Shown here in pieces: positions 43,311 through 63,643 of a stretch of DNA of 64,000 nt (position 1 is its first letter; every line of letters starts with the position of its first letter). The notes under the pieces were generated by a model. The model worked only from the letters and a program-made list of their open reading frames with translations, ran no database searches and was not told where the DNA came from. This stretch comes from Sporosarcina sp. Marseille-Q4063 (lineage in GTDB: Bacteria; Bacillota; Bacilli; Bacillales_A; Planococcaceae). The translations under genes were made by a program, and so were the position numbers. The DNA lies in the NCBI RefSeq assembly GCF_018309085.1, contig NZ_CP070502.1, forward strand, positions 930,001 to 994,000. Reading direction: 5' to 3'.

Positions 43311-43892
43311 ATGACAAATCAAAACCTGGAAATCATCTCTTTTTTTGAAAAATTGGATCGTGGCTTTTACATGGATACACACAAAGAATTCGCACACTTG
43401 GATGAAGCGATTCCAATCGGGCATGAACAAACCATTTCGCAACCTTCCCTCGTGCTCGAAATGACATTGGCACTTAATTTACAACCAGAATCAAAAGTGT
43501 TGGAGATTGGAACAGGTTCAGGCTTTCAAACCGTTCTGCTAGCCGCCTTTTCGAACTCCGTATATACAATTGAACGAATTGAGGCGTTGCACGAACGAGC
43601 TAAAGAAAGATTAAAAGATGCAGGTTTTGCGAATATCCACTTTAAGCTGGACGATGGCAGTACGGGTTGGGAAGAACATGCTCCTTATGACCGCATTATG
43701 GTGACAGCCGCCGCTGCCGAATTGCCACGCGAACTTGTGGAGCAACTAGCCATCGGCGGGAAAATGATAATCCCAGTTGGAACACCCTTTCTACAAGAAC
43801 TCCTGCTGATTGAAAAAGATGAAGACGGTAAGACTCAATCTGAAGTATTGAATGAAGTTAGGTTTGTTCCTTTGAAAGGCAAATATGAATAG
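43311..43892 (+). CDS. pcm: Protein-L-isoaspartate O-methyltransferase
   Basis: A 193-aa class I SAM methyltransferase. Features are IGHEQTISQPSLV, the SAM loop VLEIGTGSGFQT, the acidic YTIERIEALHERA and DDGSTGWEEHAPYDRIMVTAAA. It repairs isoaspartyl residues. AAAGGAG precedes the ATG. The TAG stop uses the first G of repeat copy 1, so this gene ends exactly at the start of a dispersed repeat. Confidence 0.92.
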   Translation: MTNQNLEIISFFEKLDRGFYMDTHKEFAHLDEAIPIGHEQTISQPSLVLEMTLALNLQPESKVLEIGTGSGFQTVLLAAFSNSVYTIERIEALHERAKERLKDAGFANIHFKLDDGSTGWEEHAPYDRIMVTAAAAELPRELVEQLAIGGKMIIPVGTPFLQELLLIEKDEDGKTQSEVLNEVRFVPLKGKYE

Positions 43893-44037
43893 GTACCTGT
43901 GCATGGTGCAATTATGACAATTCACGGGATTGGATAAACAATCATTTAGATATTCACAAAGCGCTATATAGTCGGTTCCTTGTTTTATTTTATGTAATTG
44001 TAGTGAATTAACTGAAAAGTGCCTTGCACAGGTACCT
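43892..44037 (+). repeat. Dispersed 147-bp element, copy 1 (hairpin decayed)
   Basis: Ends GGTACCTGTGC / GCACAGGTACC. It lies between pcm and abgT, both on the plus strand, and its right end is 19 bases from the abgT start. The central hairpin is degraded (TAGATATTCACA / GTCGGTTCCTTG), so the terminator function is probably lost. It is the only copy between two co-directional genes closely spaced in this way. Confidence 0.9.
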
Positions 44038-44056
44038 TTGCGGGAGGAGGGATATT

Positions 44057-45595
44057 GTGAACCGGTTGAAAAAAACTAAATCGATTCGATTGTTGAATTT
44101 TATTGAGGAAAAAGGTAATAAGTTGCCAGACCCGGTTACGATTTTCATCATTTTTACGTTGCTTGTTATTGGCATATCTCATGTGCTTTACATATTGGGG
44201 ATTGGTGTCAGCTTTGAGGGTGTGAACAATGAATCAGGGCAAATTGAGACACTGACTGTAAAGTCGGTTAGTTTGCTTGTTCCTGAGGGTATTGCTTATA
44301 TGTTTTCGAATGTTGTGAAAAACTTTACTTCCTTTGTGGCGCTAGGTCCGGTTCTTGTTGCGATGCTGGGAGTCGGTGTTGCTGAAAAAAGTGGCTATAT
44401 TAGTGCGTTAATGACGAATACTGTTACGAAGGCACCCAAGAAGTTCGTTACGCCTATTGTTGTTCTTATGGGGGTCTTGTCCAATGTCGCTGCTTCGGTT
44501 GGATATGTTGTGCTTGTTCCGCTTGGCGCTATCATCTTTTTGGGATTTAAGCGGCACCCGCTAGCTGGTTTGTCAGCTGCGTTTGCTGGTGTGGCGGGTG
44601 GATATTCCGCTAATCTATTCTTAGGGACGAATGATCCATTGTTAAGTGGGATTACGACAGAAGCCGCTCATATTTTAGATGCTGGATACATTGTGAATCC
44701 GACTGATAACTGGTTTTTCATGTTTGTTTCGACTTTCTTAATCGTCATTATCGGAACACTCGTAACGGACAAACTAATTGAACCGAAGTTGGGGAAATAT
44801 ATTCCCGATCAAGCGATTGAACATCAAAATGTAGTATCCAGTGTAGAGAAAAAAGGGCTCTTATGGGCAAATATTTCAATCCTCGTCACAATCATTGCGA
44901 TCGCTCTACTCGTTCTTCCTGAAAACGGCGTATTACGAGGTGAAGGTGGTAGCCTTATTCAATCGCCATTTATGAGCAGTATAATTTTCATGATGATGCT
45001 CATCTTTCTAATACCGGGTGTCGTGTATGGATTTGTTACGAAAACAATAAAGAACGATAAAGATATCGCACGTTTAATGGCATCTTCGTTGGAGACGATG
45101 TCCGGGTTCATTGTTTTAATTTTCTTTGCAGCACAGTTTGTAGCACTCTTTAATTACACAAATTTAGGCACAATTATTGCTGTCAAAGGCGCGGACTTTT
45201 TACAGTCGATTCATTTGGAAGGTGCCCCTTTACTCGTAGCATTGATTTTCATCACCACGATCATTAACTTATTCATCGCCGCGGATTCCGCAAAATGGGC
45301 GATTATGGCCCCCGTATTTGTTCCCATGTTCATGCAAATGGGGATCGCGCCAGAAGTTACACAGGTCGCTTACCGGGTTGGTGATTCTTCAACAAATATC
45401 ATTTCTCCTTTGATGCCGTTCTTTCCATTAGTTGTCGCTTTTGCACAGCGTTACGGGAAGGAGAACGGCGTAGGGACAGTCATATCGCTTATGCTGCCCT
45501 ATTCAATTATCATATTGATCAGCTGGACAATCTTTTTTGTTATATGGTATGTACTCGGGATTCCGGTTGGTCCGGGAACAAATTTGAACTACTAA
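44057..45595 (+). CDS. AbgT family transporter
   Basis: A 512-aa membrane protein with about 12 segments. AbgT/p-aminobenzoyl-glutamate transporter pattern: EEKGNKLPDPVTIFIIFTLLV, VSLLVPEGIAYM, GVLSNVAASVGYVVLVPLGA, NLFIAADSAKWAIMAPVFVPM and RVGDSSTNIISPLMPFFPLV. Family members move aminobenzoyl-glutamate or export sulfonamide-like compounds. GTG at 44057 follows GGGAGGAGGG; earlier in-frame codons lie in the repeat. Confidence 0.92.
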   Translation: MNRLKKTKSIRLLNFIEEKGNKLPDPVTIFIIFTLLVIGISHVLYILGIGVSFEGVNNESGQIETLTVKSVSLLVPEGIAYMFSNVVKNFTSFVALGPVLVAMLGVGVAEKSGYISALMTNTVTKAPKKFVTPIVVLMGVLSNVAASVGYVVLVPLGAIIFLGFKRHPLAGLSAAFAGVAGGYSANLFLGTNDPLLSGITTEAAHILDAGYIVNPTDNWFFMFVSTFLIVIIGTLVTDKLIEPKLGKYIPDQAIEHQNVVSSVEKKGLLWANISILVTIIAIALLVLPENGVLRGEGGSLIQSPFMSSIIFMMMLIFLIPGVVYGFVTKTIKNDKDIARLMASSLETMSGFIVLIFFAAQFVALFNYTNLGTIIAVKGADFLQSIHLEGAPLLVALIFITTIINLFIAADSAKWAIMAPVFVPMFMQMGIAPEVTQVAYRVGDSSTNIISPLMPFFPLVVAFAQRYGKENGVGTVISLMLPYSIIILISWTIFFVIWYVLGIPVGPGTNLNY

Positions 45596-45611
45596 GAAAG
45601 GGTTGATTGAC

Positions 45612-46037
45612 ATGAAAGTAATTACAACATGGACAGGCGGACGTGCTTTTACCGCTGTTGGAGATTCAGGTTATGATATTAATATGGATGCGACAGAAGC
45701 CTATGGCGGTTTAGGAAAAGGAGCAACCCCTACCGAAATGCTCCTCGGTGCCTTGGCGGGATGTATCGGGATTGATGTTACGATGATTTTGAGACCTCAC
45801 TTGGAAAAAATAACAAAAATCGAAATTATAACGGATGGAACTCGAAAAGAAGAACCGCCTAAAGGTTTTACAGCTATGGAAGTAACTTTTGTGATTGACG
45901 GAGACATCGACAATAAGAAAGTTTGGCGGGCGATTCGGTTAGGGAAAGATAAGTATTGTTCGGTATCGGATTCATTAAAGGCGGATGTTAGTTTTAATTT
46001 GATATTGAACGGGGAGGAATCTCCTGAGTTGGTTTAA
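45612..46037 (+). CDS. OsmC family peroxiredoxin-like protein
   Basis: A 141-aa OsmC/Ohr-fold protein with cysteines GALAGCIGIDVTM (about residue 50) and KDKYCSVSDSL (about 116), the pair typical for peroxide reduction. ATG at 45612 follows AAAGGG; a TTG at 45603 is also in frame. It lies 16 bases after abgT, so probably in one transcript. Role: reduction of organic peroxides. Confidence 0.88.
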   Translation: MKVITTWTGGRAFTAVGDSGYDINMDATEAYGGLGKGATPTEMLLGALAGCIGIDVTMILRPHLEKITKIEIITDGTRKEEPPKGFTAMEVTFVIDGDIDNKKVWRAIRLGKDKYCSVSDSLKADVSFNLILNGEESPELV

Positions 46038-46186
46038 GTAAACATCATTATCCTAACAAATAAGTATGCTACAAATACTTTCAAATGTGCGTTTCAAACA
46101 GAAGTTAATAAATCAACAAAAATATTTATCATCATTTCGGGAACACTATCTCCTGAAGCTTTTTAATAAAAGAGGAGGTAGGAAAA

Positions 46187-46381
46187 ATGGCTAGAAACAA
46201 CCCAAGACCAAATGACCCGGCCGATTATGAAGAAAGAGTGAGGAAGACTATAGGCAATATGGAAGCAGCCGAAGAGGCAATGAAGTTCGCTGAAGGAAAA
46301 GAACTTCAATCGATTAAGGAAAAAAACGCAAGACGTGAAGAAAGCATTACTGGCACGAACAATGAAATAAACAAATCATAA
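46187..46381 (+). CDS. tlp: Small acid-soluble spore protein Tlp
   Basis: A 64-aa, very hydrophilic protein with Tlp pattern (VRKTIGNMEAAEEAMKFAEGKELQSIKEKNARREESI in parts). AGGAGG lies before the ATG. Tlp is a minor spore protein made in the forespore (sigma-G). With the SASP and CdaS genes it supports sporulation. Followed by a strong terminator. Confidence 0.88.
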   Translation: MARNNPRPNDPADYEERVRKTIGNMEAAEEAMKFAEGKELQSIKEKNARREESITGTNNEINKS

Positions 46382-46393
46382 ATTAATTGACTG

Positions 46394-46437
46394 AAAAAAG
46401 CTTGCTACAGCTAATTCGCTGTGGCAAGCTTTTTTTC
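46394..46437 (+). terminator. Intrinsic terminator
   Basis: AAAAAAGCTTGC-ACAGC / GCTGT-GCAAGCTTTTTTT stem after tlp. Confidence 0.92.
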
Positions 46438-46496
46438 GTTCATTCATGATAAGAAGTATACAGTTAATCTATAGTAATGGAGGTTACTAATTAAAT

Positions 46497-47252
46497 TTAA
46501 ATTTTCAACTCAATTTTAGCATCTGCCTTTAATTCCTCAACATGTGCAGCAAGTTGTTTTTGTTGTTGTTCTTGTTCAATCATTTCTTTGATTTCATCGC
46601 TAACTTCTTCAAGCGGTGGAAGTTCTTGACCGCTATCCTTGCTTTGAGCTGCGGCTTGATCATAGTACTCTTTAATTTCTTTATCTGTCACTTTTTCCGC
46701 TGGAGCCACTTTATCTTGGTACTTTTCAAAAATTATAGATTCAGCAATTTGTTCTTTTATCGTTTTTACATCTACATTTTGACTTTTGAGTGCTTCTTTC
46801 ATTGTCTTCTCATCGCCAAATTGCTCAACAAATGCTGAATACTCTTCATCTATCTCAGATTCAGACGCATTAATTTTCGCTTCTTTTGCTTTTTGAAGGA
46901 TTAACGTCTGGTTCACAACCGTATCAAGTGCTTGCATTTTTACTTGTTTCGCCGATTCTTTACTTGATGGGTCTTGGCCCATTTGTTGCATTTGACCTTG
47001 AAGTGATCCCACTGCAGCATTATATTGCTCGCCTTTAAGTTCTTCATCATTTACAACTGCCACGACCTTGTCCTTCTCCACTTGCTGTTCGGCTAACTTC
47101 GCTTGCATTTCTTCTGCAGATTCCGTCTCTGCCTGGGCAGCTTCTTCAGGCTTTTCATTTTTCGCCGCTTTGTCATCATCACCGCAAGCAGCTAAACTTA
47201 ATGCAAGTGCACCCGTTATAAATGGAAGTAAAATTCTTCTTTTAAATTTCAT
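46497..47252 (-). CDS. SurA N-domain lipoprotein (foldase-like)
   Basis: A 251-aa lipoprotein. Signal peptide with lipobox LAAC (Cys about 23), an acidic linker, then a SurA_N-type helical domain (about 60-190) with VVNDEELKGEQYNAAV and LDTVVNQTLILQKAKEAKI. No parvulin PPIase domain is visible. It may act as an exported chaperone. ATG at 47252 follows GAAAGGGG. Confidence 0.85.
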   Translation of the reverse strand: MKFKRRILLPFITGALALSLAACGDDDKAAKNEKPEEAAQAETESAEEMQAKLAEQQVEKDKVVAVVNDEELKGEQYNAAVGSLQGQMQQMGQDPSSKESAKQVKMQALDTVVNQTLILQKAKEAKINASESEIDEEYSAFVEQFGDEKTMKEALKSQNVDVKTIKEQIAESIIFEKYQDKVAPAEKVTDKEIKEYYDQAAAQSKDSGQELPPLEEVSDEIKEMIEQEQQQKQLAAHVEELKADAKIELKI

Positions 47253-47447
47253 GTTGTAAACCCCTTTCAAATCTGGCGCTCTTTATTCCATGAGCGTAAA
47301 TTGCATCTTAACCGACATTCCCCGCGAATAAAACCCTAAACCCTCGAAGACATCATATTGTTATCTGTTTGTCATGTAACAACTTTTTCGTTTCCCATTT
47401 TAATGCGCTTCTAATGGAATATGGTAACAGAATGATGACAGAGATTG

Positions 47448-48464
47448 TCACGTTCTGTGATCTAATCTATCTGCTGTTCTTTCAAATACATTTTTTATTA
47501 TCGTAATCCTGCCCTCGATAAATGGTTGCCAAATACCTTGCACCGGTTTAGTCGATAACAGAAGAACAATTACCGCAGATAAAAGTGCGATCCCAAGTAA
47601 ATCGAAAAAAGTATTTACTTGAAAAACATCGCCCTTTCTGAAGAGTTGTATTAAAAATCCATGTAACAAATAGACATATAACGTCCTTGTCCCAAAGTGC
47701 GTTAACCTGTTATGCGCTTTTGGAATCCACGCCAGAATACTTATTGCCATGATTGCTGATGTGATGTAAACAAGTAAACGAGCAAGTCCGCCGAACGCTG
47801 GCATATCAAGTTCGCCATAAGATTTCGATGCCAATAACCATCCTGAATTAAAGTCAGGCGCAAAATAAATTGCCACTCCAACAACAGCTAACACTACTAA
47901 TGAAGCAATCTTTACACTTTTACGTTTCAGCCACATGACCTGGCCTTCCGTCACCCAATAACCAAGTAAGAAAAACGGAAAAAAGACGAACGTCCGCGAC
48001 AAACTAAATGCGTGACCGATTTCCCCAAAATAACCAACAATGATTCCTATTAAAACCGCAAGTGACACACTGAAAAATGCGGGTATTTTTTTAAATACAG
48101 ATAGCAAGATATGCCAACTAAATAAACTAAATAAAAACCAAAGCGACCACTGCGGGTAAAATACCCCGGCCTGCCAACCATTTTTTCCGATGTAGTAATA
48201 AAAAATCGTGTATAGAAGTTGGAAAATCAAGTATGGCACCAATAGTTTCTTAGCCAAATTTACGATGTACGACATGCTTCCCGAACCTTTTGCAAAAAAT
48301 CCTGCTAGAAAAATAAATGCCGGCATATGGAAAGTATAAATCCACATATATAATGTAGTGATTCCACTTGATCCGTCAATGAATGGTTGGATCATATGAC
48401 CGAATACGACTAAAAATATTAATACTAATTTTGCATTATCAAAAAATGCGTTCCTCTCCAACAT
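47448..48464 (-). CDS. Acyltransferase 3 family membrane protein
   Basis: A 338-aa polytopic protein with about ten membrane segments. Acyl_transf_3 features: FFDNAKLVLIFLVVFGHM (active-site His), TFHMPAFIFLAGFFAKG, PYLIFQLLYTI, YWVTEGQV. This group O-acylates extracellular sugars (fucose 4-O-acetylase/OatA-like). ATG at 48464 is preferred over 48470 because GAGG is 5 bases before it. Substrate unknown. Confidence 0.85.
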   Translation of the reverse strand: MLERNAFFDNAKLVLIFLVVFGHMIQPFIDGSSGITTLYMWIYTFHMPAFIFLAGFFAKGSGSMSYIVNLAKKLLVPYLIFQLLYTIFYYYIGKNGWQAGVFYPQWSLWFLFSLFSWHILLSVFKKIPAFFSVSLAVLIGIIVGYFGEIGHAFSLSRTFVFFPFFLLGYWVTEGQVMWLKRKSVKIASLVVLAVVGVAIYFAPDFNSGWLLASKSYGELDMPAFGGLARLLVYITSAIMAISILAWIPKAHNRLTHFGTRTLYVYLLHGFLIQLFRKGDVFQVNTFFDLLGIALLSAVIVLLLSTKPVQGIWQPFIEGRITIIKNVFERTADRLDHRT

Positions 48465-48723
48465 CCTCATCCTCTATCTATATACTGACATACATGCAAC
48501 TTACCCGTTTTCAAGCACCATGAAAACCATTTTCAGCCGATTTAATAGAGATGTAATGACTGTAAACTAATCGATAATTTGTAGTAAGTTTGTAACCTAA
48601 GGAATTTCGAAGTCAAAAAAAGATTAAAAAGAAAAAAAGAAAATCCCTTCACCACTAAACTTAACGTGTTTAATCATTCAATTCAGTAATCCGTAATACA
48701 CAGGTTTCGAGGTACCCTTTTGA

Positions 48724-48871
48724 GGTACCTGTGCAAGGTGCAATTATGACAATTCACGACTTTGGATAAATAATCATGGGGGGCATCGGCAACGTGTTAT
48801 ATAGCCGGTATCCCCATTTTGTTTTATGCAATTGTAGTGAATTTACTGAATAGTGTCTTGCACAGGTACCT
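48724..48871 (+). repeat. Dispersed 147-bp element, copy 2
   Basis: Full copy with GGTACCTGTGCAAGG left and CTTGCACAGGTACC right ends. The central hairpin GGGGGCATCGGC / GCCGGTATCCCC carries G-C where most copies have A-T (position 11). A separate GGTACCC fragment lies just upstream (48711). It is located in the divergent region between the acyltransferase gene and the phosphatase gene, 28 bases before the PhoP box. Confidence 0.92.
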
Positions 48872-48938: not shown

Positions 48939-48986
48939 ATCACCAGATAGAATTGAATTGTACGATACTTTGAAGGAGGAATGGAA

Positions 48987-50291
48987 TTGAAAAAAACGTT
49001 GCAGAAAAAGAGTTTGATCTTTGCAATTGCTGGGAGTTTGATTGTAGGAAGTTTTGCGGGAAATGCGTCACTACAAACCGCTGGAGCAGAAAATCCTCAA
49101 TCAAATGAAAAAGTAGAAAATGTTATTTTTATGATTCCGGACGGATATTCAAGTGCATATGCGACAAATTATCGATTGTATAAAGGCGAAGAATCAATCA
49201 TGGATCCACATTTAGTTGGCATGCACAGGACGTATTCCGCAAATTCGGAAGTGACGGATTCTGCCGCGGCTGGAACAGCGATGGCTACCGGAACCAAAAC
49301 GAACAATGGTGTTATTAGCATGGATCCAGATGGCAATAAACTCGAAACGATTTTACAAACTGCTGAAAAAAGCGGGAAATCTTCAGGATTAGTTGCTACT
49401 TCAACGATTACTCATGCTACGCCTGCGGTTTTCGCTTCACATGTTGAATCTCGCGCAAATGAAGATGATATTGCACCTCAGCTCCTTCAAAATGATGTTG
49501 ACGTCATCCTGGGTGGCGGTAAAAAGTATTTTAGTGATGATTTATTAAATGAAGCAAAACAAGATGGTTATGAAATTGTGTCCGATGCACAATCGTTAAA
49601 CAATATAGACAAAACAAACAAATTGATTGGCCTTTTCGCTGAGGATAGTTTATCACCCGAATTGGATCGTGAGACGACCGATGAGCCAAGCTTAAAGGAA
49701 ATGACATCAGCTGCCATCGATGTTTTAAGTAACGATAAAGATGGATTCTTTTTAATGGTTGAAGGAAGTCAAATCGATTGGGCTGGACATGCAAATGATG
49801 CGGCATGGGTGATGAAAGACGCTGAAGCGTTTGAAGAAGCAGTTGAGGCCGCACTGGATTTTGCGAAGAAAGATAAGAAAACGTTAGTCGTCATCGCAGG
49901 TGATCATGACACCGGTGGAATGTCTGTCGGCGGTTACGATGGCTTTGGTGCCAATTTAGAAATCCTTAAATATGTAACAGCTACAGGTGATTTCATGGCA
50001 TCTCAAATAAATGAAGAACAAAGTAATATTCAAGAAGTCATATTCCACTACACGGGAATTTCATTAACAGAAGCTAAGATTAATCGAATCAAACAAGCAA
50101 ATGAGCCAGCATTCGAGATTAACTCAATCATCTCGGAGCAAGCACTTGTCGGTTGGACACATACAGGTCATACGGGCACAGACGTCCCTGTCTACGCTTA
50201 CGGTCCACAAGCTCATAAATTTGCGGGTCTTATCGAAAATACAGATTTCCCGCAATTGATGGCCGAAGCAATGAAAATACCATTTAAATAA
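48987..50291 (+). CDS. Alkaline phosphatase
   Basis: A 434-aa secreted phosphatase with a signal peptide (about 1-34). Metal site residues are in FMIPDGYSS and the nucleophile Ser in VTDSAAAGTAMATGTKT. Further metal ligands are in MVEGSQIDWAGHANDA, IAGDHDTGGM and HTGHTGTDVPVYAYG. Start: TTG at 48987 has AAGGAGG at 7 bases; an ATG at 48981 is too close to that site. The PhoP box suggests induction by phosphate starvation. Confidence 0.94.
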   Translation: MKKTLQKKSLIFAIAGSLIVGSFAGNASLQTAGAENPQSNEKVENVIFMIPDGYSSAYATNYRLYKGEESIMDPHLVGMHRTYSANSEVTDSAAAGTAMATGTKTNNGVISMDPDGNKLETILQTAEKSGKSSGLVATSTITHATPAVFASHVESRANEDDIAPQLLQNDVDVILGGGKKYFSDDLLNEAKQDGYEIVSDAQSLNNIDKTNKLIGLFAEDSLSPELDRETTDEPSLKEMTSAAIDVLSNDKDGFFLMVEGSQIDWAGHANDAAWVMKDAEAFEEAVEAALDFAKKDKKTLVVIAGDHDTGGMSVGGYDGFGANLEILKYVTATGDFMASQINEEQSNIQEVIFHYTGISLTEAKINRIKQANEPAFEINSIISEQALVGWTHTGHTGTDVPVYAYGPQAHKFAGLIENTDFPQLMAEAMKIPFK

Positions 50292-50308
50292 ACCTGTAGC
50301 ACATATTG

Positions 50309-50357
50309 AAAAAAAAGTAGTGCAATCCAAATACATTGGTCTGCACTACTTTTTTTG
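50309..50357 (+). terminator. Intrinsic terminator
   Basis: AAAGTAGTGCA / TGCACTACTTT stem with a ~15-base loop and T7. Confidence 0.85.
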
Positions 50358-50499
50358 TATGTTTACACAAAAACATACGTTCCCCCCCTTTTGCGGAATT
50401 GTTTATTTCTTAGATTTTTAGGTAATAACTTTAACAGTTTCATCATCAGCGAGGCGCGTCTTATTAGAGATTTTAATTCAAAATGAAAGGGTGAATAAT

Positions 50500-51204
50500 T
50501 TGCTTGGGAAACCGTGGATAGCGACACAAAAATGGCATCATATTTTATTTTTACACTGGCCTGTTCCTGCAAACATCCTACATAAGCATATACCTCCAGA
50601 ACTAGATTTAGATTTATTCGATGGGCATGCTTGGATCGGATTTGTCTTTTTTAAAGCAAAAGGAACGCGTCCCCGATTTATGGTACCAATACCAGGCCTC
50701 CATTCTTATCTAGAACTTAATGTCAGAACTTACGTAACCTTTAATGGTAAATCAGGTGTTTACTTTTTCAATTTGGATACAGACAGTAATTTGGCTGTAT
50801 ATCTCAACAAAATTAGTAAATTCCTTCCTTATCGCTGTGCGAGCATGTCATTTTCAAAATCTAGTGGAAAGTATATGCCAAAGAGTATTAAAAAACATAG
50901 GGGTAAACAGCCGGAAATACTTGATTTATCTTACAAGGTAGTTCAAGAATCAATTCCGCGAAACATGCTTGAATATTGGCTAACAGAACGCTATTGTTTG
51001 TGGACAAAACACAAAGAGAAGCTTATACGTGTGGATATCGAGCATTCATCTTGGAGGCTGCATACTGTACGGTGTGAAATTCGTCGTAACTCAATGGCGC
51101 ATTTTTTAAAAGGACACCTCCAACACACGGAACCACTCGCTCATTATTCCCCAATGAAAAAAGTTCGTTTCTTTCCTCCCATATCGGAATACATTTCCAG
51201 CTAA
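50500..51204 (+). CDS. DUF2071 family protein (YqjF-like)
   Basis: A 234-aa protein matching the YqjF/DUF2071 group (WHHILFLHWPVPANILHKHIPPELDLDLFDG, the VPIPGLHSYLELNVRTYV segment and the late LTERYCLWTK). Function unknown; the fold resembles acetoacetate decarboxylase-like barrels. TTG at 50500 with GAAAGGG upstream is preferred; GTG at 50491 is an alternative. Repeat copy 3 lies 39 bases after the stop. Confidence 0.85.
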   Translation: MLGKPWIATQKWHHILFLHWPVPANILHKHIPPELDLDLFDGHAWIGFVFFKAKGTRPRFMVPIPGLHSYLELNVRTYVTFNGKSGVYFFNLDTDSNLAVYLNKISKFLPYRCASMSFSKSSGKYMPKSIKKHRGKQPEILDLSYKVVQESIPRNMLEYWLTERYCLWTKHKEKLIRVDIEHSSWRLHTVRCEIRRNSMAHFLKGHLQHTEPLAHYSPMKKVRFFPPISEYISS

Positions 51205-51242
51205 GCGAATGAACCGAACCCGTTTTTAGGTACCCTTTTCGA

Positions 51243-51389
51243 GGTACCTGTGCGTGGTTGAATTATGACAATTCACAACCGTGGATAAATAATCAAGGGG
51301 ATATCGACAAAGTGTTATATAGTCGGTATCCCCTTTTTACTTTATGCAATTGTAGTGAATTAACTGAGTAGTGTCTTGCACAGGTACCT
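51243..51389 (+). repeat. Dispersed 147-bp element, copy 3
   Basis: Ends GGTACCTGTGC / GCACAGGTACC. Hairpin GGGGATATCGAC / GTCGGTATCCCC followed by T5. An extra GGTACCC fragment lies 14 bases upstream (51229). Located between the DUF2071 and MBL genes. Confidence 0.93.
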
Positions 51390-52281: not shown

Positions 52282-52294
52282 GGTGCAATTTTGA

Positions 52295-52441
52295 GGTACC
52301 TGTGCGTGGTTGAATTATGACAATTCATCACTTTGAATAATTAGTCAAAGGGATATCGACAAAGCGTTAAATAGTCGGTATCCCTTTTTTACTTTATGCA
52401 ATTGTAGTGAATTTACTGAGTAGTGTCTTGCACAGGTACCT
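52295..52441 (+). repeat. Dispersed 147-bp element, copy 4
   Basis: Begins 13 bases after the MBL gene stop. Hairpin AGGGATATCGAC / GTCGGTATCCCT (A-T at position 1 where others have G-C) followed by T6. Confidence 0.93.
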
Positions 52442-52507: not shown

Positions 52508-53674
52508 TTGTATAGATATAACAGGCAACCACAAACGAATGTGCGCGGGCAGCCAGATGCACAGGTAATTATGCGGATACTTCGTACGCAGCACGACAAC
52601 TTATATTCGCAGTTAGAGCAAGCTGGAATGAACCGAAGCATAACTGATTATTTATTTTTACTCGTTGTCAATTATACACTCAACCAAGCAAACACAAATC
52701 AATCTGCAAATCAAATATACAATCAATTTCAAAGGCAAATCCCTTGGTTAAATCTATTCCTCAGACAATTGAACATCCCGAAAAATTTATTTGATCGAGT
52801 ATTAATCAGAGTCATTCAAATAACTTTGAATGAACTTGGTAATGGCGGTGGGCAACCCGGTCAAGGCTGGATAGGTTGGGAAGACTTGGGAGGGGTATTG
52901 ACATCCGCCCCGGCAGTAGCTTCTTGGCAACCAAATCGGCTCGATGTTTTTGTAAGGGGGACAGATCAAAGTCTTTACCATAAATGGTGGGATGGACGCA
53001 ATTGGAGCGATTGGGAAACACTTGGCGGTATATTAACCTCAGCCCCGGCGGCAGTTTCCTGGGGACCTAATCGGATTGATGTCTTTGGAAGAGGAACAGA
53101 CAATAGTTTGTACCATAAATGGTGGGATGGAAGTCGTTGGAGCGATTGGGAGAACCTTGGTGGCGTCCTAACTAGCGGCCCTGCTGTATCTTCACGTCGC
53201 CCGAATCAACTTGATGTATTCGTCAGGGGGACAAATCAAAGACTTTATAAAAAAACATGGAATGGCTCCAGCTGGGAGGATTGGGAAGACCTTGGCGGTT
53301 CACTAACCTCTGAACCAGCGGCTGTATCTTGGGGACCCAACCGAATTGATGTATTCGCCAGGGGACAAAACCAGGATCTGATTCATAAGTGGTGGGATGG
53401 ATCTGATTGGAGTAATTGGGAAAGTCTTGGGGGTGTATTGACAAGTGCTCCTGCTGTCTCCTCACGCCGTCCAAATCAACTCGACGTTTTTGTGAGAGGT
53501 ACAAATCAAGGGCTTTATCAAAGAACATGGAATGGTTCTCGTTGGGAAGATTGGGTAGCTATTGGCGGCACTTTAACATCAGCACCCGCAGCAGTGTCTT
53601 GGGGACCAAATCGAATTGATGTATTTGCTAGAGGGGAAAATCAAAACCTTATCCATTTATATCGCAATCGTTAA
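52508..53674 (+). CDS. PLL-type beta-propeller lectin-like protein
   Basis: A 388-aa protein. Residues 1-118 are a helical domain with no signal peptide. Residues ~119-388 are six tandem ~46-48-residue blades of type GGxLTSxPAxxSxxPNxxDVFxRG...LYHKWWDGxxWxDWExL. This is a PLL/fucose-binding-like propeller pattern. Blades alternate between two types (see findings). AGGAGG precedes the TTG start. A role in binding surface or environmental sugars is likely; the helical domain is not recognised. Confidence 0.85.
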   Translation: MYRYNRQPQTNVRGQPDAQVIMRILRTQHDNLYSQLEQAGMNRSITDYLFLLVVNYTLNQANTNQSANQIYNQFQRQIPWLNLFLRQLNIPKNLFDRVLIRVIQITLNELGNGGGQPGQGWIGWEDLGGVLTSAPAVASWQPNRLDVFVRGTDQSLYHKWWDGRNWSDWETLGGILTSAPAAVSWGPNRIDVFGRGTDNSLYHKWWDGSRWSDWENLGGVLTSGPAVSSRRPNQLDVFVRGTNQRLYKKTWNGSSWEDWEDLGGSLTSEPAAVSWGPNRIDVFARGQNQDLIHKWWDGSDWSNWESLGGVLTSAPAVSSRRPNQLDVFVRGTNQGLYQRTWNGSRWEDWVAIGGTLTSAPAAVSWGPNRIDVFARGENQNLIHLYRNR

Positions 53675-53704: not shown

Positions 53705-53851
53705 GGTACCTGTGCATGGTTGAATTATGACAATTCAAGACTTTGGATAATTAATCAAGGGGTTATCGACAAAGTGTTATATAGTCGATATCCCCTTTTC
53801 ATTTTATGCAATTGTAGTGAATTTACTGAGTAGTGTCGTGCACAGGTACCT
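53705..53851 (+). repeat. Dispersed 147-bp element, copy 5
   Basis: Begins 30 bases after the lectin gene stop. Hairpin GGGGTTATCGAC / GTCGATATCCCC followed by T4. An extra AGGTACCTA fragment lies 20 bases downstream (53870). Confidence 0.93.
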
Positions 53852-56202: not shown

Positions 56203-56349
56203 GGTACCTGTGCATGGTTGAATTATGACAATTCACGACTTTGGATAAATAATCAAAATGATATCGACAAAGTGTTATATGGTCGGTATCCACTTTTTGT
56301 TTTATGCAATTGTAGCGAATTTACTGATTAGTGTCTTGCACAGGTACCT
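56203..56349 (+). repeat. Dispersed 147-bp element, copy 6 (hairpin weak)
   Basis: Lies between the divergent S9 peptidase and urea transporter genes, so it is not at a gene end. Hairpin TGATATCGAC / GTCGGTATCCAC has lost its outer base pairs. Ends intact. Confidence 0.9.
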
Positions 56350-57875: not shown

Positions 57876-57980
57876 ATAGTTCACTCCTTTGATTAGACAA
57901 TTGAATTGATGTTACAATTCGTCTTATCTTTTACCAAAAGAGTTATTTAATACATAGTGAGTGAAAGGTACCTAAAGAAA

Positions 57981-58127
57981 GGTACCTGTGCAAGGTTGAA
58001 TTATGACAATTCAAGGCATTGAATAAATAATCAAGAGGATGTCGACAAAGCATTATATAGTCGGCATCCCCTTTTCACTTTATGCAATTGTAGTGAATTT
58101 ACTGAATAGTGCCTTGCACAGGTACCT
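57981..58127 (+). repeat. Dispersed 147-bp element, copy 7
   Basis: Ends 6 bases before the (minus-strand) stop of the CBS pseudogene. Hairpin GAGGATGTCGAC / GTCGGCATCCCC carries G-C at position 7 where others have A-T. An extra AGGTACCTA fragment lies 6 bases upstream (57966). Ends GGTACCTGTGCAAGG / CCTTGCACAGGTACC are fully paired. Confidence 0.93.
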
Positions 58128-58998: not shown

Positions 58999-59007
58999 CC
59001 GAATGCA

Positions 59008-59130: not shown

Positions 59131-59261
59131 TTTGCATTCTCCTTTTCCTATTATATTTTATTAAATCTATTCGATAAGCCATTAATTCTAAAAGAATTGT
59201 TCGTCTAACTCAACTTTAATTCTACGCCTATTTTTAGCGAAGAGACCTATTTTTTGAAAGC

Positions 59262-59300
59262 GTCACAAAATATCCAATTTGTTTAGTCAAACTTGTGAAT
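59262..59300 (-). promoter_or_regulatory. Redox-operator-like site B
   Basis: GTCACAAAATATCCAATTTG...GTCAAACTTGTGAAT, a weaker version of the pattern seen at 59554-59606 and, reversed, at 61619-61681. It lies ~130 bases upstream of the 40-aa gene. Confidence 0.55.
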
Positions 59301-59306
59301 AGAGTA

Positions 59307-59435
59307 TCAATTTCTTTTCATTGCAAGCCTAACTGCTATATAAACGACGACCCCGTTAAGAAGTAATTCTATGGCCATGTACCCAAAAGACCATCCACCG
59401 CCCATCATTCCTTCGTAACCATGAAAATGATGCAT
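59307..59435 (-). CDS. His-rich 42-aa membrane peptide
   Basis: MHHFHGYEGMMGGGW is followed by a single membrane helix (YMAIELLLNGVVVYIAVRLAM) and KRN. The three His, Met and Tyr residues before the helix could bind metal. Ribosome site AAGGGGTG lies before the ATG. It is preceded by operator A and followed by operator B. It is too short for ordinary gene calling. No family is recognised. Confidence 0.65.
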   Translation of the reverse strand: MHHFHGYEGMMGGGWSFGYMAIELLLNGVVVYIAVRLAMKRN

Positions 59436-59553
59436 TATTCTTCACCCCTTGCCTACTTTATAAGTAACTCATATTAGATCTAATACAATTCCCGAATAGA
59501 CTTAATTGCTTTCCTTATTCTTATTCTACTTCTTTTTCACTGAATAAAACGCA

Positions 59554-59606
59554 CTTTGTGAAATCCTTCACAAATACTCCAAATTGTTTAGTCCATTTTG
59601 TGAATA
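59554..59606 (-). promoter_or_regulatory. Rex/FNR-type operator A
   Basis: TTGTGAA-ATCC-TTCACAA (59556-59573) fits the Rex consensus TTGTGAA-N4-TTCACAA and, at its core, the FNR pattern TGTGA-N6-TCACA. A half site TTTTGTGAATA follows at 59597. It precedes the His-rich peptide gene on the minus strand. Confidence 0.7.
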
Positions 59607-59644
59607 CATTCGATTATGGGTTTAGTAGTCAAAAATGTTTTAAA

Positions 59645-59790
59645 GGTACCTGTGCAAGGTTGAATTATGACAATTCACGACTATGAATAAATAATCAAAG
59701 GGATATCGACAAAGCTTTGTAAAGTCAGTATCCACTTTTTATTTTATGCAATTGTAGTGAATTTACTGAATAGTGCCTTGCACAGGTACC
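59645..59790 (+). repeat. Dispersed 147-bp element, copy 8
   Basis: Lies between operator A and yhfW-like gene (divergent region). Ends GGTACCTGTGCAAGG / CCTTGCACAGGTACC fully paired. Hairpin AGGGATATCGAC / GTCAGTATCCAC has lost three pairs. Confidence 0.92.
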
Positions 59791-59886
59791 AAAATTTTTA
59801 CCCCCTCATCATTTCAGCGTTTAGTTTTCTGAAAATAAAGGAAGAAAAAAGACTAGATGAGTATTTAAATAGGAGGAGAATTTAAA

Positions 59887-61401
59887 ATGGATAAATTACC
59901 AGGAAAAAATCAATCTTTCTGGAGTACTACAGCCCAGGCAATGAGTTATCCACAACTGGATGAAGACATTGAAATTGATACTGCGGTTATCGGCGGAGGT
60001 ATTTCGGGCATTTTAACCGCGTACTTTCTTGCGAAGGAAGGGCAATCCGTCGCATTGCTGGAGGCTCGTGAACTCGTTAGCGGAACAACCGGTGGAACGA
60101 CTGCAAAACTGTCATCGCAACATCAACTTATCTATGATGATTTATTGCAACAAGATGGTTTGGATGTCGCGAAACTTTATTACGAAGCGAATCAGGAAGG
60201 CCAGAAACTTATTAAGGCGATTATCGATGATCATGGGATTGATTGCGATTATAAAGTTGCTGACTCCTATGTCTTTTCGGAGAATATCGAAAATACTTCA
60301 AGCATTGAAAAAGAGGCAGAGGCATATGAAAAAATTGGCATTGAAGGCGGCATAGCGGACTCGATTCCCGTAGATCTAAAGGTGACTTCCGCGCTAGTTA
60401 TGAAAAAACAAGCGCAGTTCAATCCCGTCAAATTTCTGTATGCCGTCTTAAAAGAAGTCGATTCATTGGGCGGGCGTATTTACCAGCACACAAGGTATAT
60501 GGACTCAGAAAAAAATGGCGATCAACTGATTCTTTCCACGGACACTCCGTTTACCGTAACATGCAATCAAGTAGTGTTCGCCACGTTATTCCCGGCCGAG
60601 GATCCAGACTCGTTTTATTCGGATACATTGAAGCCCGTCGCTTCTCATTTAACAGCATTCGAAAGCCCGGAAGCGTTTGATAGTGGAATATATATTAGCG
60701 ACGACGATCCTATACGGACATTCAGAGGCGCGCTAAATGGAGACCAATGTGTGCTCATCATCGGAGGCGAGACCCATCCAAAAGGTGACGGCAAGTCGAC
60801 AATCGAACATTATGAAGCAATCCAACACTATGCCAAGGAGGAATTCCGGCTTACTGAATTTCTCGGATATTGGTCGGAACATGATCACACCACACCAGAT
60901 CGACGTCCTTTCATCGGAAAAATTCAAACAGACAATGACAAAATGTATGTAATGACCGGTTATGGAAAATGGGGTCTTGCCGCATCGGCAACAGGCGCAG
61001 GAATCATCAAGAGCCTGATTGTCGGTGAGGATAACCGATTTGAAAAACTATTTAGCCCTGAACGCCAATTGCCCGAAGATAAAGGTGATCGCAATGAAAG
61101 CAACGAAACTGATGAGAATCACGTTGTATCCCCCGGCAGCGAACAAATGGAACGACAACTCGCTAAAGGACAAGCACAATCAGTTGAGATAAACGGCAAG
61201 CCCGCGGGCATGTATAAAGACACCGATGGAAACATGCATTACCTCGACCTTTCATGTACCCACCTCGGTTGTGAAGTGAAATGGAATGACGGGGATCAAA
61301 CATGGGATTGCCCATGCCACGGTTCCACTTTCGATGGAACAGGTAAAGTATTGGCAGGACCCGCGAAAGAACCTTTGAGAACAATAGATTCCTTGCAATG
61401 A
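59887..61401 (+). CDS. yhfW: FAD-dependent oxidoreductase with C-terminal Rieske domain (YhfW-like)
   Basis: A 504-aa protein. N-terminal DAO-type FAD domain with GGGISG-type motif (TAVIGGGISGILTAYFLAKEG), mid-region ending GYGKWGLAASATGAGI, then a charged linker (about 395-430) and a C-terminal Rieske [2Fe-2S] domain with CTHLGCEVKW (Cys, His) and CPCHGSTFD (Cys, His). The electron path probably runs from FAD to the Rieske cluster. Substrate unknown. AGGAGG precedes the ATG. Matches B. subtilis YhfW in layout. Confidence 0.92.
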   Translation: MDKLPGKNQSFWSTTAQAMSYPQLDEDIEIDTAVIGGGISGILTAYFLAKEGQSVALLEARELVSGTTGGTTAKLSSQHQLIYDDLLQQDGLDVAKLYYEANQEGQKLIKAIIDDHGIDCDYKVADSYVFSENIENTSSIEKEAEAYEKIGIEGGIADSIPVDLKVTSALVMKKQAQFNPVKFLYAVLKEVDSLGGRIYQHTRYMDSEKNGDQLILSTDTPFTVTCNQVVFATLFPAEDPDSFYSDTLKPVASHLTAFESPEAFDSGIYISDDDPIRTFRGALNGDQCVLIIGGETHPKGDGKSTIEHYEAIQHYAKEEFRLTEFLGYWSEHDHTTPDRRPFIGKIQTDNDKMYVMTGYGKWGLAASATGAGIIKSLIVGEDNRFEKLFSPERQLPEDKGDRNESNETDENHVVSPGSEQMERQLAKGQAQSVEINGKPAGMYKDTDGNMHYLDLSCTHLGCEVKWNDGDQTWDCPCHGSTFDGTGKVLAGPAKEPLRTIDSLQ

Positions 61402-61404
61402 AAA

Positions 61405-61439
61405 ATGCCATACGGAAAATTACCCGTATGGCTGTTTTT
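61405..61439 (+). terminator. Intrinsic terminator
   Basis: GCCATACGG / CCGTATGGC stem followed by TGTTTTT, just after the oxidoreductase. Confidence 0.9.
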
Positions 61440-61469
61440 GTAAAGCATTTTTTGGGGGTACCTTTTGGG

Positions 61470-61616
61470 GGTACCTGTGCACGGTGCATTTATGACAATT
61501 CAAGACTTTGAATAAATAATCAAGGGGATACCGACAAAGCGTTACATAGTCGGTATCCCCTTTTTACTTTATGCAATTGTAGTGAATTTACTGAGTAGTG
61601 TCTTGCACAGGTACCT
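61470..61616 (+). repeat. Dispersed 147-bp element, copy 9
   Basis: Perfect hairpin GGGGATACCGAC / GTCGGTATCCCC with T5. An extra GGGTACC fragment lies 10 bases upstream (61456). Its right end is 3 bases from operator C. Confidence 0.93.
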
Positions 61617-61618
61617 AC

Positions 61619-61681
61619 TTTGTGAAATAATTCACAAATTGGACGAAACAACTTGAACACTTTGTGAATTACTTCACAAAG
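61619..61681 (+). promoter_or_regulatory. Two Rex/FNR-type operators (C)
   Basis: TTGTGAA-ATAA-TTCACAA (61620-61637) and TTGTGAA-TTAC-TTCACAA (61662-61679), both perfect palindromes. The block is the reverse complement of operator A in outline. It precedes the 40-aa gene copy B and doxX. Confidence 0.8.
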
Positions 61682-61798
61682 TACGCTCAGATACTAAAAA
61701 TGGTTGTATAATAAGAATTAAGTTAGACGAACAAATCTCTTAGAATCAATGTTTCATAGAATATAGCGACCAAATAAAAAAGAAAGGATGAATGCAAA

Positions 61799-61921
61799 AT
61801 GTGGGTAATTACAGTTTTTGAGAAAATGAATGTTAGGATCTTTGAATACAAGGATAAAGATGAGGCTTTACTAGCACTTCAACATTTCGGTCAAAATGCT
61901 TTATTATCTTTTACAAATTAA
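61799..61921 (+). CDS. 40-aa peptide, copy B
   Basis: Twin of the minus-strand gene at 59008-59130 (37 of 40 residues the same). AAAGGATG lies upstream of the ATG. It starts 118 bases after the second operator and ends 39 bases before doxX, so it probably leads a short redox-controlled transcript. No family recognised. Confidence 0.75.
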   Translation: MWVITVFEKMNVRIFEYKDKDEALLALQHFGQNALLSFTN

Positions 61922-61960
61922 CGCATTCAGCAATACAAAATATTATTATGAGGTGAGGAC

Positions 61961-62521
61961 ATGGTTGAATTAAAGAAATCCCAGTTTGGGAAACATGTGA
62001 TTATCGAGGAAAATCCGCTATCGAGATGGTTATTTTCTAACACGACATCCGCGTGGATATGGTTGATTTTAAGATTATACCTTGGTTATTCTTGGCTGAC
62101 GGCGGGCATTGGAAAAGTTACTTCTGACGCTTGGACAGGTGCCAATGCTGGTGTTGCAGTTGAAGGATTTATGGGTGGTGCCCTTGCTAAGGCAGAGGCC
62201 GGAGATGTCGCAGGTTGGTATGCTTGGTTTTTAGAGAGTGTCGTAATTCCAAACGCAGTCCCATTTTCTTATATGATCGCATGGGGTGAAGTGTTAGTCG
62301 GACTTGGCTTAATCGTTGGACTCTTAACAGGAATCGCAGCTTTCTTCGGTGCACTTATGAATATGTCTTTCTTATTAGCAGGTACTGTAAGTTCGAATCC
62401 CGTTATGTTTATGATTGCAATAGTCTTAATACTTGCCTGGAAAGTTGCCGGTTGGTATGGGTTAGATCGTTGGGTGTTACCTCGTTTAGGAACACCATGG
62501 TCAAGGAAACGAAATGAATAA
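61961..62521 (+). CDS. DoxX family membrane protein
   Basis: A 186-aa protein with four membrane segments. DoxX pattern: LILRLYLGYSWLTAGIGKV, PYSYMIAWGEVLVGLGLIVGLLT-like stretch and FFGALMNMSFLLAGTVSSNPVMF. Family members are linked to quinone-dependent oxidation (thiosulfate:quinone oxidoreductase small subunit) or redox homeostasis. TGAGGTGAGG lies before the ATG. It follows the 40-aa gene and two Rex/FNR sites. A terminator ends the transcript. Confidence 0.9.
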   Translation: MVELKKSQFGKHVIIEENPLSRWLFSNTTSAWIWLILRLYLGYSWLTAGIGKVTSDAWTGANAGVAVEGFMGGALAKAEAGDVAGWYAWFLESVVIPNAVPFSYMIAWGEVLVGLGLIVGLLTGIAAFFGALMNMSFLLAGTVSSNPVMFMIAIVLILAWKVAGWYGLDRWVLPRLGTPWSRKRNE

Positions 62522-62528
62522 ATCAAAT

Positions 62529-62562
62529 GATATCCCAAGTTCTTTTACTTGGGATATTTTTT
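62529..62562 (+). terminator. Intrinsic terminator
   Basis: ATATCCCAAGT / ACTTGGGATAT stem with T7 after doxX. Confidence 0.92.
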
Positions 62563-62583
62563 TATTCGACCTCAAGCCAAATT

Positions 62584-63204
62584 CTACGGATTGCCTTGCG
62601 TAGTTATCGGGTACATATTTCCCCCTTTAGCAAATGAAACCCTTCCCGTCTCTTCAGAAACTATGAGGACAAGGGCATCGCTTCGTTCACTTAACCCTAA
62701 TGCAGCCCGATGTCGTGTGCCCAGTTTTTTATCACCCATATATATATCAGATAGTGGAAGAACATTTGCTGCAGAAACAATCTTATTCAGTCTAACTAAT
62801 ACAGCGCCATCATGAAGTGGATTTCCGGGATAAAAAATCGATTCCAATAATGAATGCGTCAATTCAGCACCAATTGGAATCCCTGGTCTTATCAAAGTTT
62901 CGAGTGAATCTTCCCGTTCTATCACAATTAAACCACCATGTCTCATTCTCGCCATATTTTGCAGACTCATTGATAACTCCGGATACTTGTCCGTAAATGG
63001 AGCCAAATAACAATTCAAATAAAAAGTCGCGGCTTTAATTTCAATATCCAAAAACTCTTCTTTTATTTTTTCGAAGTTACAAAGAAGACAATTATTTTCA
63101 TCTTCTATTGCCTCCAAATTAATCTGTAATTCTGATATGACTTTATGAATATCCTCTTTTAATATTTGTGTCATCGTTGTAAAATCACAATCCACATTAT
63201 CCAC
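62584..63204 (-). CDS. cdaS: Sporulation-type diadenylate cyclase CdaS
   Basis: A 206-aa c-di-AMP synthase. Two N-terminal helices (about 10-60) typical of CdaS, then a DAC domain with DGA (LHDGAVLV, about 132-134) and RHR (GTRHRAALG, about 164-166). Both catalytic motifs are intact. GTG start with GGAGGTG upstream. In Bacillus CdaS is forespore-expressed and helps germination. With the SASP and Tlp genes it supports a sporulating host. Confidence 0.93.
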   Translation of the reverse strand: MDNVDCDFTTMTQILKEDIHKVISELQINLEAIEDENNCLLCNFEKIKEEFLDIEIKAATFYLNCYLAPFTDKYPELSMSLQNMARMRHGGLIVIEREDSLETLIRPGIPIGAELTHSLLESIFYPGNPLHDGAVLVRLNKIVSAANVLPLSDIYMGDKKLGTRHRAALGLSERSDALVLIVSEETGRVSFAKGGNMYPITTQGNP

Positions 63205-63363
63205 GGTGTCGCACCTCCACCCTATTAATTCCCTGATCTGATTTTTTATATAAATGTACTTAAAGTTTACCCACGTTCGAACTATTTAACCCCTTCATGA
63301 CTGAAGGATGCCAAGCAAGCACATAACTATAGGTAAGTCTGCTAGCCAAAGGTGGTGACATCA

Positions 63364-63498
63364 ATGTCCAAAAAAAATAATCATAACAAAGGTAAAAAAG
63401 CGAATAGTGTAACGCCGCAAGGTATTGCAGATACTGAATTCACCGCAGAGCCGAAAACCAAACTTGAAGAAGCCGCTAAGAAGAAAAATACAAAATAG
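63364..63498 (+). CDS. Small Lys-rich protein, 44 aa
   Basis: A hydrophilic protein, opening MSKKNNHNKGKKANSVTPQG and ending AAKKKNTK. AAAGGTGG precedes the ATG. It resembles minor small acid-soluble spore proteins in composition only; family not recognised. The stop TAG shares its final G with the start of repeat copy 10. Confidence 0.6.
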   Translation: MSKKNNHNKGKKANSVTPQGIADTEFTAEPKTKLEEAAKKKNTK

Positions 63499-63643
63499 GT
63501 ACCTGTGCAAGGTGCAATTATGACAATTCACGGTTTTGGATAAATTATCAAGGGGATATCGACAAAGTGTTATATGTCGGTATCCCCTTTTAGTTTTATA
63601 CAATTGTAGTGAATTAACTGAATGGTGTCTTGCACAGGTACCT
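63498..63643 (+). repeat. Dispersed 147-bp element, copy 10
   Basis: Left end starts on the last base of a stop codon. Extended flanks AAAATA / TATTTT continue the inverted repeat. Hairpin GGGGATATCGAC / GTCGGTATCCCC followed by T4. Confidence 0.93.

What the first reader, a model, noticed from the sequence alone, without database searches (positions are those of the whole stretch)
43892..63643. Ten-copy, same-strand family of ~147-bp palindromic elements confined to 43.9-63.6 kb
Copies start at 43892, 48724, 51243, 52295, 53705, 56203, 57981, 59645, 61470 and 63498, each 146-148 bp. They share GGTACCTGTGC/GCACAGGTACC ends, inner AATTCAC/GTGAATT arms and a central hairpin. All are in the same orientation whatever the neighbouring gene strand, and none was noticed in the first 43.8 kb. 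No transposase is in the window. Size and layout recall bcr1-type mobile repeats of the B. cereus group, but the sequence was not matched to any named family. The one-strand bias, about one per 2 kb, is unusual for a MITE and suggests local spreading or selection tied to replication or transcription direction.
Basis: seen in the sequence. Interest (0 to 1): 0.9.

Follow-up and report, generated by a model that had tools for sequence, protein, structure and literature searches.

The report
One-way hairpin arrays with a transposase
A Sporosarcina chromosome carries at least 92 copies of a 146-bp palindromic DNA element predicted to fold into a hairpin, 84 of them packed into two zones and facing one way in each, and a transposase gene sitting among them is the likely machine that spreads them, which would make these repeats a one-way, unusually long cousin of the small REP elements known mainly from other bacteria.

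Summary
In detail: ten 145-147 bp copies, all on +, none found in the first 43.8 kb. Genome-wide there are at least 92, 84 of them in two arrays: 0.97-1.08 Mb (all +) and 3.08-3.43 Mb (all -). Both arrays face against the replication fork (88 of 92 overall), but the 8 copies outside split 4:4. The bcr1/MITE analogy is not supported: there is no abutting target duplication. Instead a Y1/HUH transposase gene of the REP-associated type (RAYT, TnpAREP) lies inside the second array, between two elements on its own strand. Among 68 genomes of the genus, all 12 with an intact RAYT of this clade have 33 or more element matches; 3 of the other 56 do. The RAYT is under purifying selection; a homologue's modelled fold best matches TnpAREP bound to a REP hairpin (4ER8). 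Element ends often carry tandem footprints of 13-14 bp period, and gene blocks flanked by elements differ or are displaced between two species. Best reading: a long REPIN-like element mobilised by its cognate RAYT, probably on the lagging-strand template. Transposition, strand and any gene-cassette role are untested. New variant of a known kind.

The parts
43892..44036 (+). element copy 1 (first copy of array I)
48724..48870 (+). element copy 2
51243..51388 (+). element copy 3 (within the query of the genome search)
52295..52440 (+). element copy 4
53705..53850 (+). element copy 5
56203..56348 (+). element copy 6
57981..58126 (+). element copy 7
59645..59790 (+). element copy 8
61470..61615 (+). 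element copy 9
63498..63642 (+). element copy 10
61457..61469 (+). left-side footprint: extra GGTACC plus 7 nt, a tandem copy of the element end and its adjoining flank
57967..57980 (+). left-side footprint: extra GGTACC plus 8 nt (2 mismatches)
48711..48723 (+). left-side footprint: extra GGTACC plus 7 nt (2 mismatches)
52282..52294 (+). left-side footprint, degenerate (GGTGCA plus 7 nt; 1 mismatch)
51229..51242 (+). extra GGTACC 8 nt left of copy 3 (same spacing; did not pass the tandem test)
48981..51204 (+). gene block between copies 2 and 3 (alkaline phosphatase, DUF2071); the phosphatase part lies elsewhere in the same array in relative G012
59887..61401 (+). FAD/Rieske oxidoreductase gene between copies 8 and 9; no counterpart in the matching gap of G012, which has an element there

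Best explanation
These repeats are long REPIN-like palindromic elements that are likely copied and moved by a cognate REP-associated tyrosine transposase (RAYT, predicted to be a Y1/HUH enzyme) encoded among them, which would act on the folded single strand exposed on the lagging-strand template. Shown: the copies and two arrays, the one orientation per array, the covarying hairpin, the RAYT gene inside array II between two elements on its own strand, the genus-wide co-occurrence of this RAYT clade with high copy number, purifying selection on the RAYT, no abutting target-site duplication, and end footprints of 13-14 bp. Inferred: the RAYT binds the element hairpin, cuts 7-8 nt outside its foot, and the 3' end left by the cut is re-copied, which would leave tandem [element end + 7-8 nt] footprints; insertion into one template strand only would fix orientation relative to the fork; local reinsertion would build arrays. 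Also inferred: elements in one orientation then act as junctions at which gene blocks are lost, gained or moved, by homologous recombination or by the RAYT itself.
For: RAYT gene at genome 3,284,011-3,284,598 (-), between elements 3,283,844 and 3,284,887, both -. NCBIfam REP_Tyr_transpos E 2.9e-18, though 66 bits is under its cut-off of 80; Pfam Y1_Tnp E 5.8e-16. HUH (H60, H62) and Y119 with N123-P124 invariant in 12 of 12 RAYTs aligned. The single sequence finds no PDB entry; a profile of the 12 finds one, 4ER8 TnpArep, E 1.6e-4; a model of homologue P0001 (87% identical, pLDDT 90) has 4ER8 as best Foldseek hit, E 1.9e-6. dN/dS 0.039 between G000 and G012. 12 of 12 genomes with an intact RAYT of at least 63% identity have 33-46 element matches (46 is the scoring cap); 3 of the other 56 reach 30 (p 6e-11; not corrected for kinship). 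In 6 of 6 cognate-clade loci examined, elements lie within 3 kb, every match over 20 bits scoring better on the RAYT's strand. 88 of 92 copies against the fork in G000, 24 of 25 listed in G022. Footprints on 73 of 266 element sides, 0.4 expected with shuffled flanks; period 13 or 14 in 41 of 47 strict cases (periods 11-16 tried). PMC8266576 (passages): TnpAREP cuts 5' or 3' of REPs and the 3'-OH may prime replication. PMC5371812 (passages): IS200/IS605 orientation follows replication.
Against: No transposition was observed. Outside the arrays the 8 copies split 4 against and 4 with the fork (the looser pattern adds one more with-fork copy at 1,674,885). G035 has 9 of 38 listed copies on its dnaA-dif replichore with the fork, 7 of them in one block at 1.04-1.08 Mb. 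So the fork rule rests on few independent arrays. G069, G022 and G003 have many copies but no intact cognate RAYT found. The element lacks the canonical REP layout: about 146 bp, not 20-40, and no GT[AG]G at the hairpin foot; an invariant GTAG is internal. No fixed dinucleotide at the footprint boundary, whereas studied TnpAREP cut at C|T. Both strands fold about equally well, so the active strand cannot be read from stability. Three copies are flanked by 59-84 bp direct repeats a few bases out, which the model does not explain.
Confidence: 0.7

Rival explanations
1. RAYT-related, but the single orientation does not come from strand-specific insertion: one old array grew by duplication and by recombination between direct repeats, and a chromosome inversion across origin or terminus put part of it, flipped, on the other arm.
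For: Arrays of G000 and G012 are syntenic; of 50 conserved adjacent gene pairs 8 have an element in both genomes, 2 in G000 only; copies outside arrays have no bias (4:4); an inversion across origin or terminus keeps orientation relative to the fork by itself; G035 has a block facing the other way.
Against: The two clean G000-only insertions between conserved neighbours (3,217,262 and 3,237,551) have the array orientation, though two are too few; identity falls with distance only weakly (array I Mantel p 0.049, array II p 0.37, 71 copies), which growth by local duplication would not predict.
Confidence: 0.3
2. MITE of a DDE transposase (bcr1-like).
For: Terminal inverted repeats, size, intergenic position (3 of 72 full array copies overlap a retained ORF by more than 40 bp).
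Against: No abutting target duplication; one orientation per array; the genus-wide partner found is a Y1 enzyme. DDE families were not searched.
Confidence: 0.06
3. Integron-like cassette array whose hairpins are attC-type sites of a tyrosine recombinase.
For: Same-orientation hairpins between mostly metabolic genes; 10 of 43 listed gene-indel rows have an element at both ends in one genome and one in the other (rows partly nested or reciprocal).
Against: Only four PF00589 proteins over the cut-off in G000, none in the arrays; genes on both strands; synteny breaks at elements are enriched (44 of 54 vs 56 of 96, p 0.004) but this fades as spacer length is matched (p 0.011, 0.09, 0.54 at net 30, 80, 150 bp); the chimera test at junctions was inconclusive.
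Confidence: 0.05
4. A host-serving DNA or RNA motif (chromosome organisation, termination, regulation) kept by selection in one orientation.
For: Strong conservation of ends and covarying hairpin; one orientation per array.
Against: Patchy across the genus and tracking the RAYT clade; mostly in two zones; orientation indifferent to gene strand; no Rfam family reached in window 43,000-64,000.
Confidence: 0.07

Closest known systems
REP/REPIN elements with their RAYT (TnpAREP), e.g. E. coli REP/BIME and P. fluorescens SBW25 REPINs
   Same: Intergenic multi-copy hairpins, conserved ends with variable middle, a class-2 Y1 transposase gene beside its own elements, RAYT clade and element going together, tandem copies with flanks. 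SBW25 REP tandem arrays lie forward on one side of the genome and reverse on the other (PMC3116915, section 12 read; passages).
   Different: About 146 bp and asymmetric, GGTACC/GGTGCC foot, no GT[AG]G at the foot, array copies in one orientation instead of inverted doublets, 13-14 bp end footprints; in Sporosarcina.
IS200/IS605 family (IS608, ISDra2)
   Same: Y1/HUH fold (Foldseek hits 2-18), hairpin substrate, no abutting target duplication, orientation that follows replication (PMC5371812 passages).
   Different: The element carries no gene, and its transposase is RAYT-like (196 aa, Y---NP), not the IS200 type.
bcr1 and other MITEs
   Same: Size range and terminal inverted repeats (PMC3733652 passage).
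   Different: No abutting target duplication, Y1 partner, one orientation per array.
Integron cassette arrays (attC sites)
   Same: Same-orientation imperfect hairpins between exchangeable genes (recalled).
   Different: No PF00589 integrase in the arrays; genes on both strands.

Membership tests
Canonical REP | 20-40 bp palindrome | tested here: not met
   145-147 bp in the window
Canonical REP | GT[AG]G tetranucleotide at the 5' foot of the hairpin | tested here: not met
   Foot is GGTACC; GTAG invariant in 73 of 73 aligned copies but internal
Canonical REP | high-copy and intergenic | tested here: met
   at least 92 copies; 3 of 72 full array copies overlap a retained ORF
REPIN/REPtron | two inverted REPs around a variable middle, forming one hairpin | tested here: inconclusive
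   conserved ends and variable middle are there, but the ends are inverted only over the outer 12-14 bp and are not canonical REPs
REPIN/REPtron | cognate RAYT gene with the element beside it | tested here: met
   elements within 3 kb of the RAYT in 6 of 6 cognate-clade loci, none in 7 of 7 other-clade loci; the related 69-bp repeat of L150 matches the model weakly
TnpAREP (class 2 Y1) | HUH motif and Y---NP motif | tested here: met
   class definition from PMC6006769 passages
TnpAREP (class 2 Y1) | score over NCBIfam NF047646 cut-off | tested here: not met
   66.1 bits, cut-off 80
TnpAREP (class 2 Y1) | cleaves single-stranded element | not testable with these tools
   needs biochemistry
DDE MITE (bcr1-like) | fixed target-site duplication | tested here: not met
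   0 of 133 exact at 7-12 bp, 0 of 133 with one mismatch at 7 bp
DDE MITE (bcr1-like) | a DDE element with the same ends in the genome | not tested
   no DDE family was searched
Integron attC array | integrase of the tyrosine family with the array | tested here: not met

The most novel reading that the evidence does not exclude
The RAYT does not only copy the hairpin: by cutting at two same-facing elements on one exposed strand it lifts out and reinserts the gene block between them, so that Sporosarcina runs two chromosomal gene-cassette arrays on single-strand, replication-polarised transposition instead of an integrase.
Probability: 0.12. Interest if true: 0.88.

Novelty: new variant of a known kind. 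Interest (0 to 1): 0.6.

Why it matters
How REP-type repeats spread is still open: the enzyme cuts them in vitro (PMC8266576), but movement is hard to see. Here is a RAYT with a large, asymmetric element whose orientation can be read, so strand use relative to the fork becomes countable from genomes alone; the 13-14 bp end footprints may mark each reaction; and 12 intact-RAYT genomes beside RAYT-less relatives (one RAYT with an in-frame stop) form a natural gain/loss series. It also brings a RAYT-repeat system, described largely from gammaproteobacteria, into a cultured genus of Bacillota (that Sporosarcina is such a genus is recalled). If elements move genes, a domesticated transposase would be shaping gene order.

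Tried and rejected
Rfam scan of window 43,000-64,000: one sub-threshold microRNA-family hit (E 0.059, far under its gathering score), set aside. Element against plasmid and phage records: no match at E 1e-5. Genome-contig scan with an exact end pattern: none; many relatives have GGTGCC/GGCACC ends, so the pattern was too strict. Integron idea: pursued through synteny, then no integrase in the arrays. DDE idea: TSD test negative. Long direct repeats across the element: 16 of 133 copies exceed the 95% level of mismatched-pair controls, three of them clearly. Chimera test for crossovers inside elements: 8 events, one (1021-1023 kb) looks like a left/right switch, the rest undecided. Strand choice by folding energy: no clear difference (top strand more stable in 43 of 73). 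RNAalifold on the plain alignment found only the ends and two small hairpins, with no covariation; the structure was taken from the fold of one copy, so cells-paired figures lean towards it. Pattern of a known dif site: 4 of 41 genomes matched, of the replichore-tested ones only G035. PMC3971601 is not held.
Full report
What is there. The window is 930,001-994,000 (+) of a 3,978,257-bp single-contig genome. The ten copies are real, 145-147 bp, all on +. HMM search (model from the ten copies, E<=1e-3) of 464 kb fetched from this genome gives 85 non-overlapping hits: 28 + and 0 - in block 930,001-1,114,000; 54 - and 0 + in 3,140,001-3,380,000; 1 - near 3.434 Mb; 1 + and 1 - near 2.22 Mb. A covariance model built from 73 of 76 full or near-full copies (one left out because a stretch boundary cut it, two because their ends are altered) gave 146 genome matches, which I reduced by hand to 92 places by keeping the better strand; 84 lie in the two arrays. 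That search scored 150 of 2,980 candidates, so 92 is a lower bound; the looser pattern shows one more, at 1,674,885 (-).

Organism. As these are of the window's genus, the host is a Sporosarcina.

Anatomy. Both ends are GGTACCTGTGCA.../...TGCACAGGTACC with a 12-14 bp terminal stem. GGTGCAATTATGAC[AT]ATTC (consensus) follows on the left; TTATGCAATTGTAGTG precedes the right end, and its GTAG is invariant in 73 of 73. The middle is a hairpin whose sequence varies while pairing is largely kept: 13 of its 14 pairs show changes on both sides; over all 43 pairs 68 cells changed on both sides against 31 in shuffles, 0 of 500 shuffles as high. Weaker controls in the same call: the number of pairs with such changes (14) is reached by 17 of 500 shuffles, and partners slid by one column give 55 cells, though only 35% of cells then pair against 87%. 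The structure came from one copy's fold. Single-stranded DNA folding is far stronger than in shuffles for 5 of 5 strands tried (z -4.7 to -6.3). Relatives have the same plan: GGTGCC ends in the G031, G035 and G036 copies I saw, mostly GGTACC in G028, with different hairpin sequences (output cut in the middle). No match was found in 24 genomes of the class outside the genus.

Orientation and replication. dnaA lies at 2.373 Mb and GC skew changes sign between 2.30 and 2.40 Mb and between 0.30 and 0.40 Mb. So both arrays face against the fork: 88 of 92 copies overall. G022: 24 of 25 listed copies, with the terminus assumed antipodal; G035, between dnaA and a dif-like site: 29 of 38 listed, with 7 of the 9 exceptions in one block at 1.04-1.08 Mb; its other contig has 34 - and 4 +, direction of the fork unknown (rows beyond the listing limit not seen). 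Against a simple fork rule: outside the arrays G000 has 4 against and 4 with. G028 has a contig stretch with 4 - then 4 + copies. Orientation is indifferent to neighbouring genes. Copies thus come in one-way arrays whose direction in G000 and G022 opposes the fork; the number of independent arrays is small, and p-values that count copies overstate the case.

Partner enzyme. A Y1_Tnp search of 16 chosen genomes found in G000 one full gene (196 aa from its first start) inside array II and Y1 fragments near 2.028 Mb. Around cognate-clade RAYTs (64-94% identity to G000's) in G012, G028, G031, G035, G036 and around G000's own, elements lie within 3 kb and score better on the RAYT's strand; around 7 other-clade RAYTs (46-56%) none was found. 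Named loci agree: the S. quadrami, ACRSL and two S. luteola RAYTs have element matches on their strand, the others of the 17 that I scanned have none, except L150 (S. sp. NCCP-2716), whose 69-bp repeats match the model weakly. Genus-wide, 68 genomes: 12 with an intact RAYT of at least 63% identity have 33, 41, 43, 45 and eight times 46 matches (46 = scoring cap); G020, whose RAYT has an in-frame stop, has 13; of the remaining 55, G069 (430 contigs), G022 and G003 have 46, 39 and 33, the rest 21 or fewer. Several of the 8 G003 copies I read look decayed (altered or missing ends). Catalytic residues are invariant, dN/dS is 0.039, the PDB profile hit is 4ER8 only, and the best structural match of a model of homologue P0001 is 4ER8, TM 0.73 by target and 0.62 by query length. 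Other-clade RAYTs sit near their own GGTACC-ended palindromes, 69 bp in L150 and about 47 bp in L154 and L156, which fits the published rule that each RAYT has its own repeat family (PMC6006769, section 12 read).

Footprints. 73 of 266 element sides in G000 and G012 carry a tandem copy of the element's last bases plus 3-8 nt of flank (one nt), against 0.4 expected with shuffled flanks. Period is 13 in 27 and 14 in 14 of 47 strict cases. Seven cases repeat 21-40 nt of the element. No abutting target duplication of 7-12 bp exists in 133 copies. One clean G000 insertion (3,217,262) has an empty site in G012 without GGTACC; another (3,237,551) is flanked by an 84-bp direct repeat that is single in G012, and two more copies have 59-71 bp repeats. 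I read the 13-14 bp marks as products of cutting 7-8 nt outside the foot followed by re-copying or strand transfer; that step is inferred.

Gene blocks. Arrays of G000 and G012 are syntenic, with blocks between elements present in one only or displaced. Of 43 listed indel rows (27 + 16, some nested or reciprocal), 10 have an element at both ends in one genome and one in the other; 13 involve no element. Breaks are enriched at elements (44 of 54 vs 56 of 96, p 0.004; G012 33 of 41 vs 55 of 97, p 0.011) but the effect fades when spacer length is matched (G000 p 0.011, 0.09, 0.54 at net 30, 80, 150 bp; G012 0.11, 0.29, 0.31). Plain homologous recombination between direct repeats is enough to explain this.

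Known or new. Papers seen: PMC6006769 (abstract, section 12, passages), PMC8266576, PMC3733652, PMC5371812 and PMC4847372 (passages), PMC3116915 (passages and section 12); others in listings only. In the rows listed by searches (14 of 14; 3 of 3; 20 of 240; 15 of 2,683; 15 of 572; 10 of 10) of an open-licence library I saw no title or abstract start describing this element or a RAYT-repeat system in Sporosarcina or its family; I did not open the rest. One Geobacillus paper lists RayT counts. Subscription papers are not covered. It works like a REPIN-RAYT system; it is not a canonical REP, because length and foot motif were tested and not met.

Noticed in passing
window 52876-53634: The gene at 52508-53674 (DUF346 repeats) contains tandem repeats of 135 bp period (D2).
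   Followed up: no
L150 1587-8202 (S. sp. NCCP-2716); L154, L156: Other-clade RAYTs are surrounded by shorter GGTACC-ended palindromes (69 bp; about 47 bp GGTACCAGGTTCT..AGAACCTGGTACC), suggesting a genus-wide series of RAYT-repeat pairs.
   Followed up: partly
G028 contig C41, 41-77 kb: Element orientation switches from 4 minus to 4 plus copies near 49 kb; an inversion edge or a replication boundary.
   Followed up: no
G000:C1:3237551, 3208950, 3295046: Three copies are flanked by direct repeats of 59-84 bp; for 3237551 the repeated stretch is single in G012.
   Followed up: partly
G017 and G007: Several extra proteins with a partial Bac_DnaA domain (191-315 aa) per genome.
   Followed up: no
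P0013: A 94%-identical RAYT fragment is filed under Microvirga sp. 3-52 on a 476-bp contig; probably contamination.
   Followed up: no
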